DNA from: Candidatus Omnitrophota bacterium
Lineage (GTDB): Bacteria > Omnitrophota > Gorgyraeia > B26-G9
Reading direction: 5' to 3'
Length of the DNA: 37,942 nt
Assembly: GCA_018813905.1 (NCBI GenBank)
Contig: JAHJAO010000071.1
Span: 1-37,942 of the forward strand
In this document: in pieces, positions 31 to 11,619 of the stretch
Numbering within the stretch: position 1 is the stretch's first letter
Layout of the letters: each line of letters starts with the position of its first letter
The notes under the pieces: model-generated
The model's database searches: none
Seen by the model: the letters and a program-made list of their open reading frames with translations, nothing else
What the model was told of the DNA's origin: nothing
Translations under genes and position numbers: made by a program

Positions 31-139
31 GTTTGCTTCTCCTTTCTGGTTTTTTGTTTCTCCAAAACTAATTATACCAAAAAGGTTAACATGGCCCTTC
101 TTTTTATCTCAAAGTGTAAACAGATCTTGGAACGAGCTC

Positions 140-206
140 ACTTCATGGGCGGCTAGGCGGGAAAATCCCTGAATTATTACCATTTTTTTAAAAATCCGCC
201 GCCGAT
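140..206 (-). repeat. Left copy of a 67-bp inverted repeat (element A)
   Basis: The reverse complement of 140-206 matches 5546-5612 at 66/67 positions (ATCGGCGGCGGATTTTTAAAAAAAT[G/T]GTAATAATTCAGGGATTTTCCCGCCTAGCCGCCCATGAAGT). Confidence 0.95.
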
Positions 207-5545: not shown

Positions 5546-5612
5546 ATCGGCGGCGGATTTTTAAAAAAATTGTAATAATTCAGGGATTTTCCCGCCTAGC
5601 CGCCCATGAAGT
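5546..5612 (+). repeat. Right copy of the 67-bp inverted repeat (element A)
   Basis: 66/67 identical to the reverse complement of 140-206; the mismatch is at 5571. Confidence 0.95.
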
Positions 5613-5651
5613 TACCTCAAAGACGGCGAGGCTGGCCCGGCCGAGGACGCA

Positions 5652-6206: not shown

Positions 6207-8351
6207 GTGAAAAATAAAATAATTACGGTTCTGCTTATCACCGCATTTTTGCCGTTATTTCCGGCCTGGGTTTATGGCGGTTCAGAACATGGCTTAAACA
6301 GTTTTATCTCACCGCGGGTTATGATTGAAAAGCAAGCACTGCAAAATTTGCTTTCGGGTAGCGATCAGGTAAAGTTTTCCGAAGAGCGGATTCAGGAACG
6401 TATTTTTCAGGAGGAACTCACCGCAAATCAGCCGCTCGCGATCGCTCGGAGATTAATCGATGGATTTCCTTCCAAAGCGGCGCATATTGTTTTGCATGAA
6501 ATCCCTGACGATGAGAAATGGAAGGTTTTGAAAAAAATGCCTGCGTCGCATATCGCGTTGATGCTTAATACGCTGGAGTACGCAGAGGCCGGCCGGATAT
6601 TGCAGCAGATGAAACCGTTGAAAGCAGGACTTGTTCTCAAGGCCATGGCTTCTGGGGATAATGTTTTTCAGAAACTTCTGCTGGCATTTCAATCGCTTTT
6701 ACTCAAAACTCCGGGGCCGCGGCAGATCGTGCATGCGACGATTGAGGAAGCGGAATTTTTCCGCTGCGGTGGACTTGCCGATATATTAAAGAATCTGCCG
6801 CGGGAAACAGCCGAACAGGGAGATATCCCGAGCGTTTTTATGCCGCTGTGGGCTGGGATTGATAAAGAAAATCTCAATTATGTAGGATTCTTCATGGTGC
6901 CCATGGAATCCAGCGAAGGGTATCGCGAGGAACGCATCGATTTGTTTTACACAGAGATCGGTGACCTTGTAAAATACCGGATCTATTTTGTTGAAAATCA
7001 TACATACTTCGATGTTGATAAAGAAGGCGTGTTTTCAGGCCGGATGATGGAGCGATTTATTGTGTTTGACAAGGCAGTGGTTGAAGCCGTGCGGTATCTG
7101 GATATGCGTCCTGATATTATCCATTGCCATGAATGGCATACAGGCCTTATTCCGGCATATTTAAAGGCATTTTATCAGGAACGCGGAATCGAGCAGTTCC
7201 GGAATACGATTTCAGTGTATTCATCGCATAATCCCACACTTGATTTTAAAGGCCCGGAGAATTCTTTTTATATGACCGGACTGGATAAAAGTCTTTTTCG
7301 TTTTGATGGCTTGGAGATCAATAATCAATGGTCATTTTCCAAAGCAGGTCTGATGTTTTCCAATATCAGCAATACCGTGAGCAGAAGCATGGCCGAGGAT
7401 GCTTGGACACAAGATTTTATCGGAACGATCAGGAATGATTTCAAAGGAACGTATAAATATCTAGCAGAGCAGGGCCGGTGGTTCGGGATCATAAACGGCG
7501 GGAATGAGCATTTTCGGGCAGAAATAAATACCGGGATCGCGGCAAATTTTGATGTTAACCATCTTGATGTGCGGATCAAAAATAAGATCGCCTTACAGAA
7601 AAACCTGGGCCTTGAGGTCAACGTGGATAAACCAGTGGTTGCGATCATCGGTCGTCTTACCGAACAAAAAGGATATGATCTGTTGCTGCCGATAATTATG
7701 GATATCCTGGAACGCGGCGGACAATTTGTTTCACTCGGCGAAGCAGGTAGGACGGATCCTTCAGGACAGCATCTGCATAACGAATTTAAAAAACTGATCC
7801 ATATGATCGATACGGACTCTCGTTATGAGCAGTACCGGAATCAGATCAGCATGAATTTTGTTTTTAGTCGTATATTTGCTGACGGTACGAACCTTGAAGC
7901 GCTTATCTGTAGTGGTGCGGATATCGTTATTCTGCCTTCAAAATTTGAGCCTTGTGGTCTAGTGCAAATGAATACCGCCGGCTGCGGCGGGGTTAGCGTT
8001 GTCCATAAGATACAAGGGTTGGCAGATACTGTCAAGCCTTACAATCGAAAAACAGGCACAGGGATGGGGTTTTTATTTAATAGTCATTCCGCTGATGCCG
8101 CGCGTCATGCGCTTTTTGAGGCTATGGATATTTTCCGTAATGACCGCGCGACATGGCGGCAGATACAGGAAAACAATATGAACGCTGATTTCAGCTGGGA
8201 TCCTGTTTTCTGGGAATATCGCAATCTGATCTATTCGCTAGCCCGGCCATCTGTTCCAGTGCTTGTTTTGGGCTTGAGCAAACTTTCCCAAGGACGGCAG
8301 GAATTGTGGCAGGGAAAAACAGTTGTTCTGCTGTCCCTGCAAGCCATTTAG
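6207..8351 (+). CDS. Signal-peptide-bearing glycogen/starch synthase-like GT5 glycosyltransferase with an MgtE_N/FliG-like helical N-terminal region
   Basis: GT5 motifs FRCGGLADILKNLP, IIHCHEWHTGLIPAYLK, GRLTEQKGYDLL, ILPSKFEPCGLVQMNTAG, QGLADTV. N-terminal signal peptide MKNKIITVLLITAFLPLFPAWVYG. Confidence 0.88.
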   Translation: MKNKIITVLLITAFLPLFPAWVYGGSEHGLNSFISPRVMIEKQALQNLLSGSDQVKFSEERIQERIFQEELTANQPLAIARRLIDGFPSKAAHIVLHEIPDDEKWKVLKKMPASHIALMLNTLEYAEAGRILQQMKPLKAGLVLKAMASGDNVFQKLLLAFQSLLLKTPGPRQIVHATIEEAEFFRCGGLADILKNLPRETAEQGDIPSVFMPLWAGIDKENLNYVGFFMVPMESSEGYREERIDLFYTEIGDLVKYRIYFVENHTYFDVDKEGVFSGRMMERFIVFDKAVVEAVRYLDMRPDIIHCHEWHTGLIPAYLKAFYQERGIEQFRNTISVYSSHNPTLDFKGPENSFYMTGLDKSLFRFDGLEINNQWSFSKAGLMFSNISNTVSRSMAEDAWTQDFIGTIRNDFKGTYKYLAEQGRWFGIINGGNEHFRAEINTGIAANFDVNHLDVRIKNKIALQKNLGLEVNVDKPVVAIIGRLTEQKGYDLLLPIIMDILERGGQFVSLGEAGRTDPSGQHLHNEFKKLIHMIDTDSRYEQYRNQISMNFVFSRIFADGTNLEALICSGADIVILPSKFEPCGLVQMNTAGCGGVSVVHKIQGLADTVKPYNRKTGTGMGFLFNSHSADAARHALFEAMDIFRNDRATWRQIQENNMNADFSWDPVFWEYRNLIYSLARPSVPVLVLGLSKLSQGRQELWQGKTVVLLSLQAI

Positions 8352-8434
8352 CACTTTTTGCCAGATACCCACCATTCAATAAAATAAACGCCTTCATTTC
8401 TATTCGCTCTACGCTGTTTTTTGTAAATAGTCGC

Positions 8435-8469
8435 CGTATTGCTCGCCTCTCGTTCTAGCGAGCAATACG
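8435..8469. repeat. Inverted repeat, 12-bp perfect arms
   Basis: CGTATTGCTCGC (8435-8446) and GCGAGCAATACG (8458-8469). Confidence 0.9.
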
Positions 8470-8573
8470 CCTGCCTCGCCAAACTCTACAGTGGGGCGTT
8501 AGGAGAAAAACTTAAGGGTTTTCCCCAGGCAAAACGCGACCCAGACGGGGTACTAAAAATATTCTAAATTTAC

Positions 8574-8602
8574 TTGACAAGCATGCTTAGTTAGTGTATA
8601 TT
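8574..8602 (+). promoter_or_regulatory. Promoter of the cold-shock gene pair
   Basis: TTGACA (8574-8579), 17-bp spacer, TATATT (8597-8602). Confidence 0.75.
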
Positions 8603-8637
8603 TGTTGCCGTAGTAAATAAGGTGATAAAAACTAGTG

Positions 8638-8673
8638 CCGTAAGGCAATGTAGTTTTGCCTTGCGGTTTTTTT
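8638..8673 (+). terminator. Intrinsic terminator within the csp 5' leader
   Basis: CCGTAAGGCAA-TGTAGTT-TTGCCTTGCGG followed by TTTTTTT. Confidence 0.8.
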
Positions 8674-8724
8674 GTCTACTCCATTGTTTACTATAGTTTA
8701 AAAGAAGAGGAGGTGTAGTGAATA

Positions 8725-8925
8725 ATGGCAAAAGGAACGGTTAAGTGGTTCAGTAACCAAAAAGGTTACGGATTTATAGCTTATGATGATGGTGAAGACG
8801 TGTTTGTGCATCATAGTGAAATTCAGGGTGACGGCTATAAGTCTATGGAAGAAGGCCAGGCTGTTGAATTTGAGATCAAAGAAGGTCGCAAAGGAAAACA
8901 GGCCGCTAAAGTAACGAAAGTGTAA
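8725..8925 (+). CDS. Cold-shock protein (CspA family)
   Basis: [36 protein letters not shown]1 and RNP2 present. Confidence 0.97.
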
Positions 8926-8988
8926 AAAAACAATTAGGCCCGGGCATTTATGCTTGGGTCTTATTTTTCACAGAAAGGAAGGCATATT

Positions 8989-9195
8989 ATGCATACGGGA
9001 AAAATAAAAAAGTTAGTTCGCGACCGCGGGTTTGGGTTTATCAGCGATACTGACGGACGAGAAATATTTTTTCATCAGAGCAGCTTGGTTGGTGTCGCGT
9101 TTGACGCGTTAACCGGGACGGAAGATGTGGAGTTTGAAGTAGAACAATCTCCGAAGGGTCCGCGCGCGGTTAATGTGAGCTTAGTAAGCGCATAA
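8989..9195 (+). CDS. Second cold-shock-domain protein (divergent)
   Basis: Start at 8989 behind AAAGGAAGG. GKIKKLVRDRGFGFISDTDGREIFFHQSSL. Confidence 0.92.
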   Translation: MHTGKIKKLVRDRGFGFISDTDGREIFFHQSSLVGVAFDALTGTEDVEFEVEQSPKGPRAVNVSLVSA

Positions 9196-9228
9196 TATCC
9201 GAAAACAGTATCGGATATAAACGAATAA

Positions 9229-9263
9229 AACAGTCCCCCGAGTAAAGCGGGGGCTGTTTTTTT
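9229..9263 (+). terminator. Intrinsic terminator
   Basis: CAGTCCCCCG-AGTAAAG-CGGGGGCTG then TTTTTTT; one bulged T. Confidence 0.85.
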
Positions 9264-9325
9264 ATTTAAGGCGGGGATAATCCTGCGCTTGCATACAGGC
9301 GGAAATTAGTTTAGAATAATCTATC

Positions 9326-10159
9326 ATGAATTTGGAAAAAAAAGTTTTTGCTTGGATCTTATCCTGCCTGATTCTTTGTTTAGCTTCCGGCTGTGCGACC
9401 GTTCCTTTTACCGGGCGCAAACAGCTGGTATTGATACCCTATATTGAGTTGCGCACTCTAAGTTATGATAACTACCGCAAAATCATGAGCAAAGTTAAAC
9501 TATGTCCAGATGAACAAAAAGCCGGACTCGTGCGGGATGTGGGCCGCAATATTTCTTACGCGGCGGAGAAGTTTTTGTACGAAGCGGGAAAAGGGGATCT
9601 TGTGCATCAATTTGACTGGGAATTCACCCTAATCGAAGACGATAACACCGTAAACGCTTTTGCTTTGCCCGGCGGCAAAGTTGCGGTTTATACCGGGATT
9701 TTAGAATACACACAGGATGAAGCCGGCTTGGCGGTCGTCATCGGCCATGAAATCGCGCATGTCATTGCCAACCATGGAGGCGAGCGGTTAAGCCAAATGA
9801 TGCTTGCTCAATTCGGGCACAGCCAGCTGGCGATGGCTTTGAAAACCAAACCCGATACCACGCAGCAGTTTTGGATGCTGGCTTATGGACTAGGGATGAA
9901 TTTAGGAGCAATTCTGCCTTACAGCCGCCTGCATGAGAAAGAAGCGGACAGGATCGGATTGATAATCATGGCCCGGGCCGGGTATGACCCAAATCGCGCC
10001 GTCACTTTTTGGCAGAAGATGAAGGAGCAGAGTAAAGGGGGAAGAAATATGCCTGAATTTCTCTCTACGCATCCTGCTCCGGATACACGCATCGAGGAAA
10101 TCCGGACGGCTATACCGGAAGCCATGCAGTATTATGGAATGGATAAGGAGAATTATTAG
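9326..10159 (+). CDS. M48-family metalloprotease lipoprotein
   Basis: Lipobox LASGC, VVIGHEIAHVIANHGGERLS (HExxH), EKEADRIGLIIMARAGYDP. Confidence 0.93.
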   Translation: MNLEKKVFAWILSCLILCLASGCATVPFTGRKQLVLIPYIELRTLSYDNYRKIMSKVKLCPDEQKAGLVRDVGRNISYAAEKFLYEAGKGDLVHQFDWEFTLIEDDNTVNAFALPGGKVAVYTGILEYTQDEAGLAVVIGHEIAHVIANHGGERLSQMMLAQFGHSQLAMALKTKPDTTQQFWMLAYGLGMNLGAILPYSRLHEKEADRIGLIIMARAGYDPNRAVTFWQKMKEQSKGGRNMPEFLSTHPAPDTRIEEIRTAIPEAMQYYGMDKENY

Positions 10160-10344
10160 GGAAAGTTTTTTAAGCCAAAAAAGGGTTGAATTAGAGATTT
10201 TTTCCGCTAGATTTTAATTTATAACATATTATTTATCAATGTGTTATATTCAACAGTCTTGCCCCCGCATTCATTTGCAATAGTATGTAAATTATGGTAC
10301 ACTTTTATGCCTTTTTTACATCTTAAAAATCTATAGGGAGGGTT

Positions 10345-11619
10345 GTGTTTAAAAGATCAATTTTTAAAATAGTTATATTTATTCTCATTCAAGCAATCTT
10401 GCTATCTGGGGTAGTTTGGGCCGGACAGTTTGACATGCTTTCGCCAAGTTTAAACATAGACAAGATACAGCTTAAAAACATTTTGGCATTAACGGTTCAG
10501 GATAAACTTTATTCAGAGATTATAAATTTGAAAGATGTAAAAGAAATAGACGTTAGTTGGCTTTTGGAAAATTTCAGGAAAGCTCTCATTAAGCATATTT
10601 TGAATAGAGGGGGTTCCGAAGAAAAACTAAGTAGAAATTTAGAACAAATCAATATGCAATTATATGATTTTGTCGATGAACATAACGATATGGAACAAAG
10701 AAAGTGGGGTGCGTCAGTAAGGAAGCTATATGGAAAGATATTTGCCGATGGCGATTCTCTTGGTGATGACGAACACATGACACTTTTGACAAAGTTGTTG
10801 CGCAAATCAAGATTTTCTAATATCGCGATGCCTTTGTCTTTAAAGCAAAACATTATTAAAAATAGAACTAAGTTGAATGAGACCCTAATATCGGAAATTA
10901 TAACTGGTAGGGTAGGAGTTGTTACTATTAAAAGCTTAAAAGATATGCTTGAGTTAAGTCTTGAGGAGGAGAAGTATCTATGGAAGATTTTCCACAGGAC
11001 AGAGACCGGGTTTTCTAATAGAAATTTAGAAGATATGAAGAGAGATTGTAAGCAGACGTTCGATCATATTGATCAAGCTATCGGTAATTGGAACAAGCCA
11101 GAAAAGTTAAAAGTTTTAGATTTGGGTTGCGGACCAAGGGGGGCAACAATCAAAGATATCAAAAAAAAGTATGGCCAGAAGATAGATGCTTTTGGGATAA
11201 ATCTGGTGTTATCTGATGCTGCCGGATCAGATTTAGGGAAGAGGGGTAAAGACGCGACGTATGTTAATTTAAAAGAGGGGGATGCAAAAAACATGCCTTT
11301 TCCAGATGGTTATTTTGATTTGATCTATGAAATTGGCTTAACAGAATATCATCTAGGCAACGATGAATTTGAAGAGATAATTGCAGAGATAGTACGGGTA
11401 CTTAGCCCCGGCGGAAAATGTATTATTAGTTGGGTGTATCAAGACTGGATAATTGAACGAATTGATGGGGTATTGCAAAGCACCCAAGCTGGTCTTCAAT
11501 GCAGGCTTCATAAAGACAGGCTTACAGTAACTATTGAAAAACGAGATACCAGCTTAAATCGATTAATGCATTTAGTAAATGGACAGCAGCAAATATTGCC
11601 CATTGAAACGGCAATTTAA
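10345..11619 (+). CDS. Signal-peptide-bearing class I SAM-dependent methyltransferase
   Basis: LKVLDLGCGPRG, GDAKNMPFPDGYFDLIYEIGLTEYH, RVLSPGGKCIISW. N-terminal hydrophobic signal ending GVVWA. GTG start. Confidence 0.85.
   Translation: MFKRSIFKIVIFILIQAILLSGVVWAGQFDMLSPSLNIDKIQLKNILALTVQDKLYSEIINLKDVKEIDVSWLLENFRKALIKHILNRGGSEEKLSRNLEQINMQLYDFVDEHNDMEQRKWGASVRKLYGKIFADGDSLGDDEHMTLLTKLLRKSRFSNIAMPLSLKQNIIKNRTKLNETLISEIITGRVGVVTIKSLKDMLELSLEEEKYLWKIFHRTETGFSNRNLEDMKRDCKQTFDHIDQAIGNWNKPEKLKVLDLGCGPRGATIKDIKKKYGQKIDAFGINLVLSDAAGSDLGKRGKDATYVNLKEGDAKNMPFPDGYFDLIYEIGLTEYHLGNDEFEEIIAEIVRVLSPGGKCIISWVYQDWIIERIDGVLQSTQAGLQCRLHKDRLTVTIEKRDTSLNRLMHLVNGQQQILPIETAI

What the first reader, a model, noticed from the sequence alone, without database searches (positions are those of the whole stretch)
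6303..10485. Shared 17-residue post-signal-peptide motif on two unrelated enzymes
After their signal peptides the GT5 protein has FISPRVMIEKQALQNLL (6303-6353) and the SAM methyltransferase has MLSPSLNIDKIQLKNIL (10435-10485). They share [IL]SP-x3-I[DE]K-x2-L[KQ]N[LI]L, with 7 identical plus several conservative positions, while the catalytic domains are unrelated. This suggests an N-terminal sorting/anchoring tag appended to normally cytoplasmic-type enzymes, i.e. an uncharacterised export or envelope-targeting system.
Basis: partly seen in the sequence, partly recalled or inferred. Interest (0 to 1): 0.75.

Follow-up and report, generated by a model that had tools for sequence, protein, structure and literature searches.

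The report
Two-ended sorting tag in Omnitrophota
A family of uncultured bacteria puts the same address labels, one behind the export signal at the front and one of six residues at the very end, on dozens of otherwise unrelated proteins, including spare copies of metabolic enzymes and proteins over 7,000 residues long, which points to an undescribed protein-sorting route.

Summary
The 17-residue box after the signal peptides of the window's glycogen-synthase-like protein and methyltransferase recurs on about 46 proteins of this 2.15-Mb Omnitrophota genome and on 9-49 proteins in each of the 12 genomes searched from its GTDB family. The consensus is T-L-[SA]-P-x-[LVI]-x-I-[ND]-x3-F-Q-x2-[FY], 4-27 residues after the hydrophobic core. 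The protein bodies behind it are unrelated to one another.

111 of 125 complete tagged proteins end in Ile. The window proteins end LSLQAI and PIETAI. N-tag and C-tag go together (Fisher P = 7e-35). Both are confined to this family; a sister family shows a different C-tag, Lx[AS]A-COOH.

Every genome keeps one untagged housekeeping phosphoglycerate kinase and glycogen synthase; the extra divergent copies that I read in full carry both tags. No known sorting family matches and no paper describes it.

Best reading: a dedicated two-ended sorting signal for Sec-exported proteins (0.7), probably to the cell surface, outside or a host (0.4). Receptor, processing and destination are not shown.

The parts
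6207..8351 (+). Tagged glycogen-synthase-like (GT5/GlgA) protein, 714 aa, GTG start
   Evidence: Pfam PF08323 E 3.6e-45; TIGR02095 E 2.6e-94, 316.6 bits against a cutoff of 328.45; AF2 model matches E. coli glycogen synthase 2qzs, TM 0.87 over the target
6207..6278 (+). Signal-peptide-like N-terminus VKNKIITVLLITAFLPLFPAWVYG
   Evidence: Read from sequence; matched by the A1/A2 profiles; VRNKIIAVLLSAVFLALSPAWAHG in the ortholog. No SignalP available
6303..6353 (+). N-tag FISPRVMIEKQALQNLL (post-signal-peptide box)
   Evidence: conserved in the 79%-identical ortholog as FISPRVTIEKTALQKLL
8331..8348 (+). C-tag LSLQAI-COOH (variant of [LF][IV]EQ[AS]I)
   Evidence: ortholog ends LPLQAI
10345..11619 (+). 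Tagged SAM-dependent methyltransferase, 424 aa, GTG start
   Evidence: Pfam PF08241 E 3.7e-13
10345..10422 (+). Signal-peptide-like N-terminus VFKRSIFKIVIFILIQAILLSGVVWA
   Evidence: Read from sequence; profile hit E 1.6e-17
10435..10485 (+). N-tag MLSPSLNIDKIQLKNIL
   Evidence: homolog in another genus of the family (L034, G002) carries YLSPQIHLGDGSFNQG
11599..11616 (+). C-tag PIETAI-COOH (variant of the C-terminal hexapeptide)

Best explanation
The two window proteins belong to a large set of exported proteins marked by a two-ended address. Three elements make it up. (1) A special Sec-type signal peptide of the form xxFKIIAxxLIQAFLxxDIAWAG. (2) After a spacer of 4-27 residues measured from its hydrophobic core, a box T-L-[SA]-P-x-[LVI]-x-I-[ND]-x3-F-Q-x2-[FY]. 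(3) A strict C-terminal hexapeptide [LF][IV]EQ[AS]I-COOH. Shown: the three elements co-occur on dozens of unrelated proteins per genome, are conserved at protein level, and are specific to one GTDB family of Omnitrophota; the extra divergent copies of two housekeeping enzymes carry them while the housekeeping copies read do not. Inferred: the signal peptide sends the protein through the inner membrane; a receptor in the envelope reads the box and the free C-terminus, most simply a PDZ-like or chaperone-like groove for an -[AS]I-COOH end; and it sorts the protein to one destination, most likely the surface, the outside or a partner/host cell.
For: 46 N-tagged proteins in the own genome from a 12-sequence profile, and 9-49 in all 12 genomes searched in the family. 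Over 384 Omnitrophota genomes, listed matches outside the family cover mainly the signal-peptide part of the model. Signal-peptide-only selection: 36/42 carry the box against 0.9 shuffled. The downstream bodies are mutually unrelated except for 3 pairs; cargo domains are diverse and cofactor-dependent. C-tag: 111/125 end in I, 87 A + 28 S at -2, information confined to the last six residues, 0/163 control ORFs. The DNA pattern [IVM]EQ[AS]I-stop occurs 27 times in the own genome against 0 for the reversed control, and is at control level outside the family; codons vary, so selection is on the protein. N-tag and C-tag are coupled, Fisher P 7e-35. A C-tag site found by DNA pattern alone (C50) turned out to have the N-tag. 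Each of the 12 genomes has one ordinary PGK and one ordinary GlgA; the two read in full (own genome) carry no tag. The divergent extra copies that could be read in full (PGK x4, GT5 x4 plus two giants) carry N- and C-tags; for one giant only the C-end lies on the contig. Charge flanks predict N-in/C-out (+2.2 versus -1.1). In the GT5 model the enzyme folds confidently while both tags have pLDDT<50, as expected of linear motifs.
Against: No experiment shows export. Signal peptides were recognised by pattern, without SignalP. ATP-, SAM- and ADP-glucose-dependent enzymes are odd in a periplasm. No cognate receptor, protease or secretion gene was found: no untagged gene family recurs widely next to tagged genes, and machinery encoded elsewhere was not sought. 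About a quarter of complete N-tagged ORFs miss the strict C-tag regex, though most of these end in near variants or are broken genes. The family is anonymous here and uncultured.
Confidence: 0.7

Rival explanations
1. Host- or prey-directed effectors (a specific form of the best explanation): the two-ended tag is a secretion and delivery signal, so that spare metabolic enzymes, methyltransferases, kinases and giants act in or on a partner cell, which supplies ATP, SAM and sugar nucleotides.
For: Cargo needs cytosolic cofactors yet has signal peptides. Tagged enzymes are divergent extra copies. Giants carry the tags. Omnitrophota are reported as small, host-dependent or predatory, with giant ORFs of unknown role (PMC10066038).
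Against: No host is known for this family. The ATP/ADP translocase reported for other Omnitrophota was not found in 12 genomes (but the search rang in no control genome, so absence is not established). No injection machinery was sought or found.
Confidence: 0.35
2. A glycosome-like or envelope compartment: the tags gather spare glycogen/glycolysis and other enzymes into an internal compartment or enlarged periplasm.
For: Cargo includes glycogen synthase, GH77, CBM48, glucan-water-dikinase Ig, PGM, ROK, PGK, pyruvate kinase, PEP-utilisers and adenylate kinase. A C-terminal short peptide plus an N-terminal signal resembles peroxisomal PTS1/PTS2 logic.
Against: Cargo is far broader (helicases, HTH repeats, HEAT, methyltransferases, radical SAM). 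The pathway sets seen are incomplete. No shell or organelle protein was identified.
Confidence: 0.2
3. Processing or turnover tag: a Prc/Tsp-like C-terminal protease reads the small hydrophobic C-terminus and trims or degrades the protein, while the N-box is a maturation site.
For: Prc/Ctp proteases read C-termini through a PDZ domain (PMC6686036, PMC5686067). The sister family's C-tag Lx[AS]A resembles SsrA/Prc-type ends.
Against: Selection keeps the exact end on dozens of proteins together with an N-box, which a general degron does not need. The terminal Ile and the E-Q positions are more specific than Prc preferences as I know them.
Confidence: 0.15
4. A passive N-terminal cassette: the signal peptide plus box spreads by gene conversion or shuffling and has no sorting role of its own.
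For: Neighbours in one cluster share signal-peptide DNA at 65-76% identity while their bodies are at background.
Against: Most tags are near background DNA identity (median 0.49) yet keep the same residues. The box survives in a 79%-identical ortholog. The physically separate C-tag is coupled to it.
Confidence: 0.07
5. Chance resemblance of two mature N-termini.
Against: Profile, shuffle, coupling and lineage tests.
Confidence: 0.01

Closest known systems
Type IX secretion (Bacteroidota): signal peptide plus C-terminal domain
   Same: A Sec signal at the front and a C-terminal sorting signal on many unrelated cargos, including very large ones
   Different: The T9SS signal is a folded Ig-like C-terminal domain (PMC11285876), not a free hexapeptide; no Por/T9SS sorting-domain hit appeared in the Pfam and NCBIfam scans; no post-signal-peptide box is part of T9SS
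PEXEL / host-targeting motif of Plasmodium
   Same: A short motif behind the signal peptide on large numbers of diverse proteins; similar logic of an address read after entry into the secretory path
   Different: The PEXEL consensus RxLxE/Q/D is absent; no C-terminal partner is known; eukaryotic ER protease plasmepsin V (PMC10900883, PMC4077696)
Peroxisomal/glycosomal PTS1 and PTS2 (own knowledge)
   Same: A strict C-terminal short peptide as targeting signal; glycolytic enzymes among the cargo
   Different: PTS1 is SKL-like and works without an N-terminal signal peptide; bacterial setting; here both ends are tagged on one protein
Prc/Tsp, CtpA and SsrA C-terminal recognition
   Same: Small hydrophobic C-terminus read by a groove (PMC6686036)
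   Different: Those read degrons or processing ends, without a coupled N-terminal box and without lineage-specific exact consensus
YSIRK and ESPR extended signal peptides; LPXTG and PEP-CTERM sorting (own knowledge)
   Same: Sorting information attached to signal peptides or to C-termini of surface proteins
   Different: None of these Pfam/NCBIfam signatures was hit; there is no C-terminal membrane helix with basic tail

Membership tests
Sec-exported proteins with a signal peptide | Positive n-region, hydrophobic core, small residues before the cleavage site, N-in/C-out charge bias | tested here: met
   (mean net charge +2.2 before and -1.1 after the core); pattern-based, not SignalP
Sec-exported proteins with a signal peptide | Actual cleavage and translocation | not testable with these tools
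   Needs proteomics of mature N-termini
Type IX secretion cargo | C-terminal Ig-like domain / T9SS sorting-domain signature | tested here: not met
   No Por_Secre_tail or T9SS sorting hit in Pfam scans or NCBIfam (10 proteins); conservation confined to the last 6 residues
Type IX secretion cargo | Presence of the Por/Spr translocon in the genome | not tested
PEXEL-type host targeting | RxLxE/Q/D consensus | tested here: not met
   Position table of 140 tags shows TL[SA]Px[LVI]xI...FQxx[FY], no conserved Arg
PEXEL-type host targeting | Export into a host cell | not testable with these tools
   Host unknown
Lipoproteins | Invariant Cys at +1 after the signal peptide | tested here: not met
   Window tags have no Cys there; scattered Cys in some others. 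True lipoproteins of the window lack the N-box
LPXTG / PEP-CTERM / YSIRK / ESPR | Their named signatures | tested here: not met
   No hits; C-termini hold no TM helix plus basic tail
Prc/Tsp substrates | Nonpolar free C-terminus recognised by a PDZ protease | tested here: inconclusive
   The ends are small/hydrophobic but recognition cannot be tested in silico here
GT5 glycogen synthase (window protein 1) | GlgA domain with catalytic residues | tested here: inconclusive
   Domain and fold met, score just under the TIGR02095 cutoff; GRLTEQKG and EPCGL retained, but KTGGL reads FRCGGL

The most novel reading that the evidence does not exclude
Omnitrophota run an undescribed protein secretion or compartment-targeting system that reads a two-ended address: a special signal peptide plus a TL[SA]P box at the front and a free hexapeptide at the end. 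Lineages have their own C-terminal code ([LF][IV]EQ[AS]I in one family, Lx[AS]A in another), and the system moves spare sets of 'cytoplasmic' enzymes and giant proteins out of the cytosol, possibly into a host.
Probability: 0.55. Interest if true: 0.95.

Novelty: categorically new. Interest (0 to 1): 0.85.

Why it matters
It gives a sequence code by which the exported proteome of an uncultured, reportedly host-dependent phylum can be read from genomes alone, including the giant proteins whose role is an open question (PMC10066038). It predicts a receptor for a free '-[AS]I' or '-[AS]A' end and for a TL[SA]P box, so a search for the matching machinery becomes a defined task. If the destination is a partner cell, it is a first catalogue of candidate effectors for these bacteria. 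The spare, divergent, tagged copies of phosphoglycerate kinase and glycogen synthase beside untagged housekeeping ones are a natural experiment for testing localisation.

Tried and rejected
- Literal regex in the genome: only the two window sites. With 3 mismatches, chance dominates (60 + 69 matches against 58 + 47 control), but reading true frames there gave the first extra members.
- Chance or ordinary mature N-termini: rejected.
- Lipoprotein, LPXTG, PEP-CTERM, T9SS: no signature.
- Shared downstream domain as the cause: rejected, only 3 related pairs.
- Recurrent untagged neighbour as the cognate gene: none widely shared in sampled loci.
- ATP/ADP translocase as host-dependence marker: no hit, but the control was silent too, so nothing follows.
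- AF2 of the GT5 protein to see whether N- and C-tags pack together: both are low confidence, so no answer.
- Rfam and tRNA in the window: none.
- Paper searches for Omnitrophota with signal peptide, sorting signal, or the C-terminal string: no description found. No preprints are held.
Full report
WHAT WAS CHECKED. The two 17-mers exist at the stated coordinates and in frame, with 7 of 17 identities. The proteins behind them are a GT5/GlgA-like protein (PF08323; TIGR02095 316.6 bits against a cutoff of 328.45; glycogen-synthase fold, TM 0.87 to 2qzs) and a SAM methyltransferase (PF08241). The nearest relative of the GT5 protein, 79% identical over its whole length, is on a contig named Candidatus Omnitrophota bacterium isolate bin S2.42, which places the window in Omnitrophota. 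In that ortholog the box reads SFISPRVTIEKTALQKLL and the end reads LPLQAI. GT5 relatives from other phyla match only from about residue 171 on (one, from 283), that is without the tag.

HOW COMMON IS THE BOX. A profile of 12 N-termini finds 46 at E<=0.0012 in the genome, nearly all covering both the signal peptide and the box, including open frames of 7423 and 7288 residues. All 12 genomes searched in the same GTDB family have 9-49 such proteins. Over 384 Omnitrophota genomes, full-length matches belong to this family; listed matches elsewhere cover mainly the signal-peptide part and often sit on ORFs of 4,000-11,000 residues. A model of the signal peptide alone selects 42 ORFs in 483 kb of held sequence; 36 have the box in the next 45 residues, against 0.9 on average (maximum 6) after shuffling. 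Those stretches were largely chosen for containing hits, so the 36/42 is inflated. The genome-wide profile search, which does not require the box, gives a less biased view: about 46 hits reaching into the box against 4 that cover the signal peptide only. Ordinary exported proteins in the control stretches and the window lack the box.

ANATOMY. Aligned on 140 tags the box is T-L-[SA]-P-x-[LVI]-x-I-[ND]-x-x-x-F-Q-x-x-[FY]; conservation stops at its last position; it starts 4-27 residues after the hydrophobic core (median 19.5), and flanking charges predict N-in/C-out. In the GT5 model both ends are unstructured (pLDDT<50) around a confident enzyme, as expected for linear motifs. Neighbouring tagged genes share signal-peptide DNA (up to 76%) but not bodies (about 43%, background), so N-terminal cassettes seem to have been moved locally; most pairs are near background DNA identity and keep only the residues.

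THE SECOND TAG. An alignment consensus of tagged proteins ended in 'IxQAI'. Reading the C-termini of 125 complete tagged proteins showed why: 111 end in I, 87 have A and 28 S before it, 76 Q at -3, 62 E at -4, 64 I and 37 V at -5, 47 L and 30 F at -6. The last six positions hold 1.2-3.1 bits each and those upstream about 0.2; 88 of 125 match a strict regex against 0 of 163 control ORFs. As a DNA pattern for [IVM]EQ[AS]I-stop, the own genome has 27 matches against 0 for the reversed pattern; the ten family genomes in that sample have 79 in total against 0; the other 374 genomes have 0-2 each, like the control. Codon choice varies between copies, so it is the peptide that is kept. N-tag and C-tag go together: 96 of 126 complete N-tagged ORFs have the strict C-tag, against 5 of 122 others (P = 7e-35). 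The exceptions are mostly near variants, and the C-only cases look like second halves of broken or split genes or of stretches cut by my sampling. One C-tag site found only by DNA pattern (G000:C50) proved to have a signal peptide and an ATLSPKLYL box. The window proteins end LSLQAI and PIETAI.

WHAT IS TAGGED. The bodies are mutually unrelated apart from three pairs. Pfam names GT5, many methyltransferases, SF1 helicase, phosphoglycerate kinase, guanylate-kinase-like, NAD(P)H-hydrate dehydratase with cytidylyltransferase and APH, histidine-kinase ATPase with HTH repeats, HAD, metallophosphatase, and in relatives radical SAM with B12-binding, pyruvate kinase, PEP-utilising enzymes, adenylate kinase, PGM/PMM, ROK, GH77, CBM48, protein kinase, GGDEF, HD, NUDIX, FAD oxidoreductase, HEAT and TPR. 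About half have no Pfam domain. For two enzymes I asked whether the tagged copy is the only one. It is not: the 12 genomes have a strong-scoring PGK and a strong-scoring GlgA of normal length (in one genome the PGK is split over two contigs), and the own genome's two, read in full, carry no tags. The divergent extra copies in long frames read in full (PGK in four genomes; GT5 in the window, in three more tagged proteins and in two giants) carry the C-tag or a close variant (one GT5, G005:C3, ends VAWAI), and all whose N-end is on the contig carry the N-tag. The giant in G000:C10 starts off the contig, so only its C-end (LIQEAI) is seen. Catalytic residues are partly kept: the window GT5 keeps GRLTEQKG and EPCGL but has FRCGGL where active enzymes have KTGGL; the tagged PGK of this genome keeps much of the conserved core.

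SISTER FAMILY. In family f29 of the same class the same type of signal peptide is followed by another box (TLA-x-x-S-x-FQQ...). A profile of it hits 23 of 24 genomes. Of 26 such proteins whose end could be read, 22 end in A, 19 have A/S before it and 17 have L at -4, i.e. Lx[AS]A-COOH; about nine of these are homologous to each other, so the independent count is smaller. This suggests a class-wide two-ended system with lineage-specific codes. It is preliminary.

MECHANISM. The evidence fits a dedicated sorting route: Sec export by a special signal peptide, then recognition of the box and of the free C-terminus by an unknown receptor. Which end is read first, whether either is cut, and the destination are inference. 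Surface or external delivery, perhaps to a partner cell, is my first choice (0.4), because cargo needs cofactors found in a cytosol, tagged enzymes are spare divergent copies, giants are included, and the phylum is reported as host-dependent (PMC10066038). An internal compartment (0.2) and a processing or turnover tag (0.15) remain open.

KNOWN SYSTEMS. It works like T9SS (front signal plus C-terminal signal) or PEXEL (motif behind the signal peptide), but it is a member of neither: no T9SS C-terminal domain (PMC11285876), no RxLxE. It is not lipoprotein, LPXTG, PEP-CTERM, YSIRK or ESPR. No paper in the open library describes it; subscription papers and preprints were not searched.

LIMITS. 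No SignalP, no localisation, no receptor. Loci were partly chosen by the tags. The C-tag was found after the fact, but then tested by an independent DNA pattern with control. I rate the finding 'categorically new' as a sorting signal, on the understanding that its sorting role is inferred.

Noticed in passing
L133, L138, L142, L145, L143, L285 (N-ends) and L284, L287, L288, L293, L300-L338 (C-ends), family f29 and others: The same type of signal peptide (FL..DI.WA) is followed by a different box (TLA..S.FQQ then RFQ..FSD) and proteins end in Lx[AS]A-COOH: a possible lineage-specific variant of the two-ended tag.
   Followed up: partly
G000:C64:25301 (7423-aa frame), G000:C93:21653 (7288-aa frame), G000:C10 (4247-aa frame), G002:C31 (9619-aa frame): Giant ORFs carry the tags; the last two contain a GT5 domain near their C-terminus and end LIQEAI / LLEQAI.
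   Followed up: partly
L077 (G000:C101), L168 (G008:C34), L154 (G011:C220), L159 (G010:C138): Tagged genes stand in tandem runs of 4-6; in C101 neighbours share signal-peptide DNA but not bodies, as if N-terminal cassettes were swapped.
   Followed up: partly
L072:3472-4755 (-), L157:161-1677 (+), L161:2584-3540 (-): Adjacent N-tag-only and C-tag-only ORFs that look like the two halves of broken or frameshifted tagged genes.
   Followed up: partly
window 134-206 and 5546-5618: Inverted repeat, arms of 73 nt, 96% complementary, 5.3 kb apart; nature unknown, possibly a small mobile or REP-like element.
   Followed up: no
window 8725-8925 and 8950-9195: Two cold-shock-like proteins side by side between the two tagged genes (by reading the sequence).
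   Followed up: no
window 9326-10159: M48-type metalloprotease lipoprotein (HEIAH motif, lipobox ASGC) between the tagged genes, by reading the sequence; it lacks the N-box and serves as a local negative control.
   Followed up: partly
window 6432-6656 (GT5 protein residues 76-150): A helical stretch between tag and enzyme matches MgtE_N weakly (E 4.6e-05, just under Pfam's cutoff).
   Followed up: no
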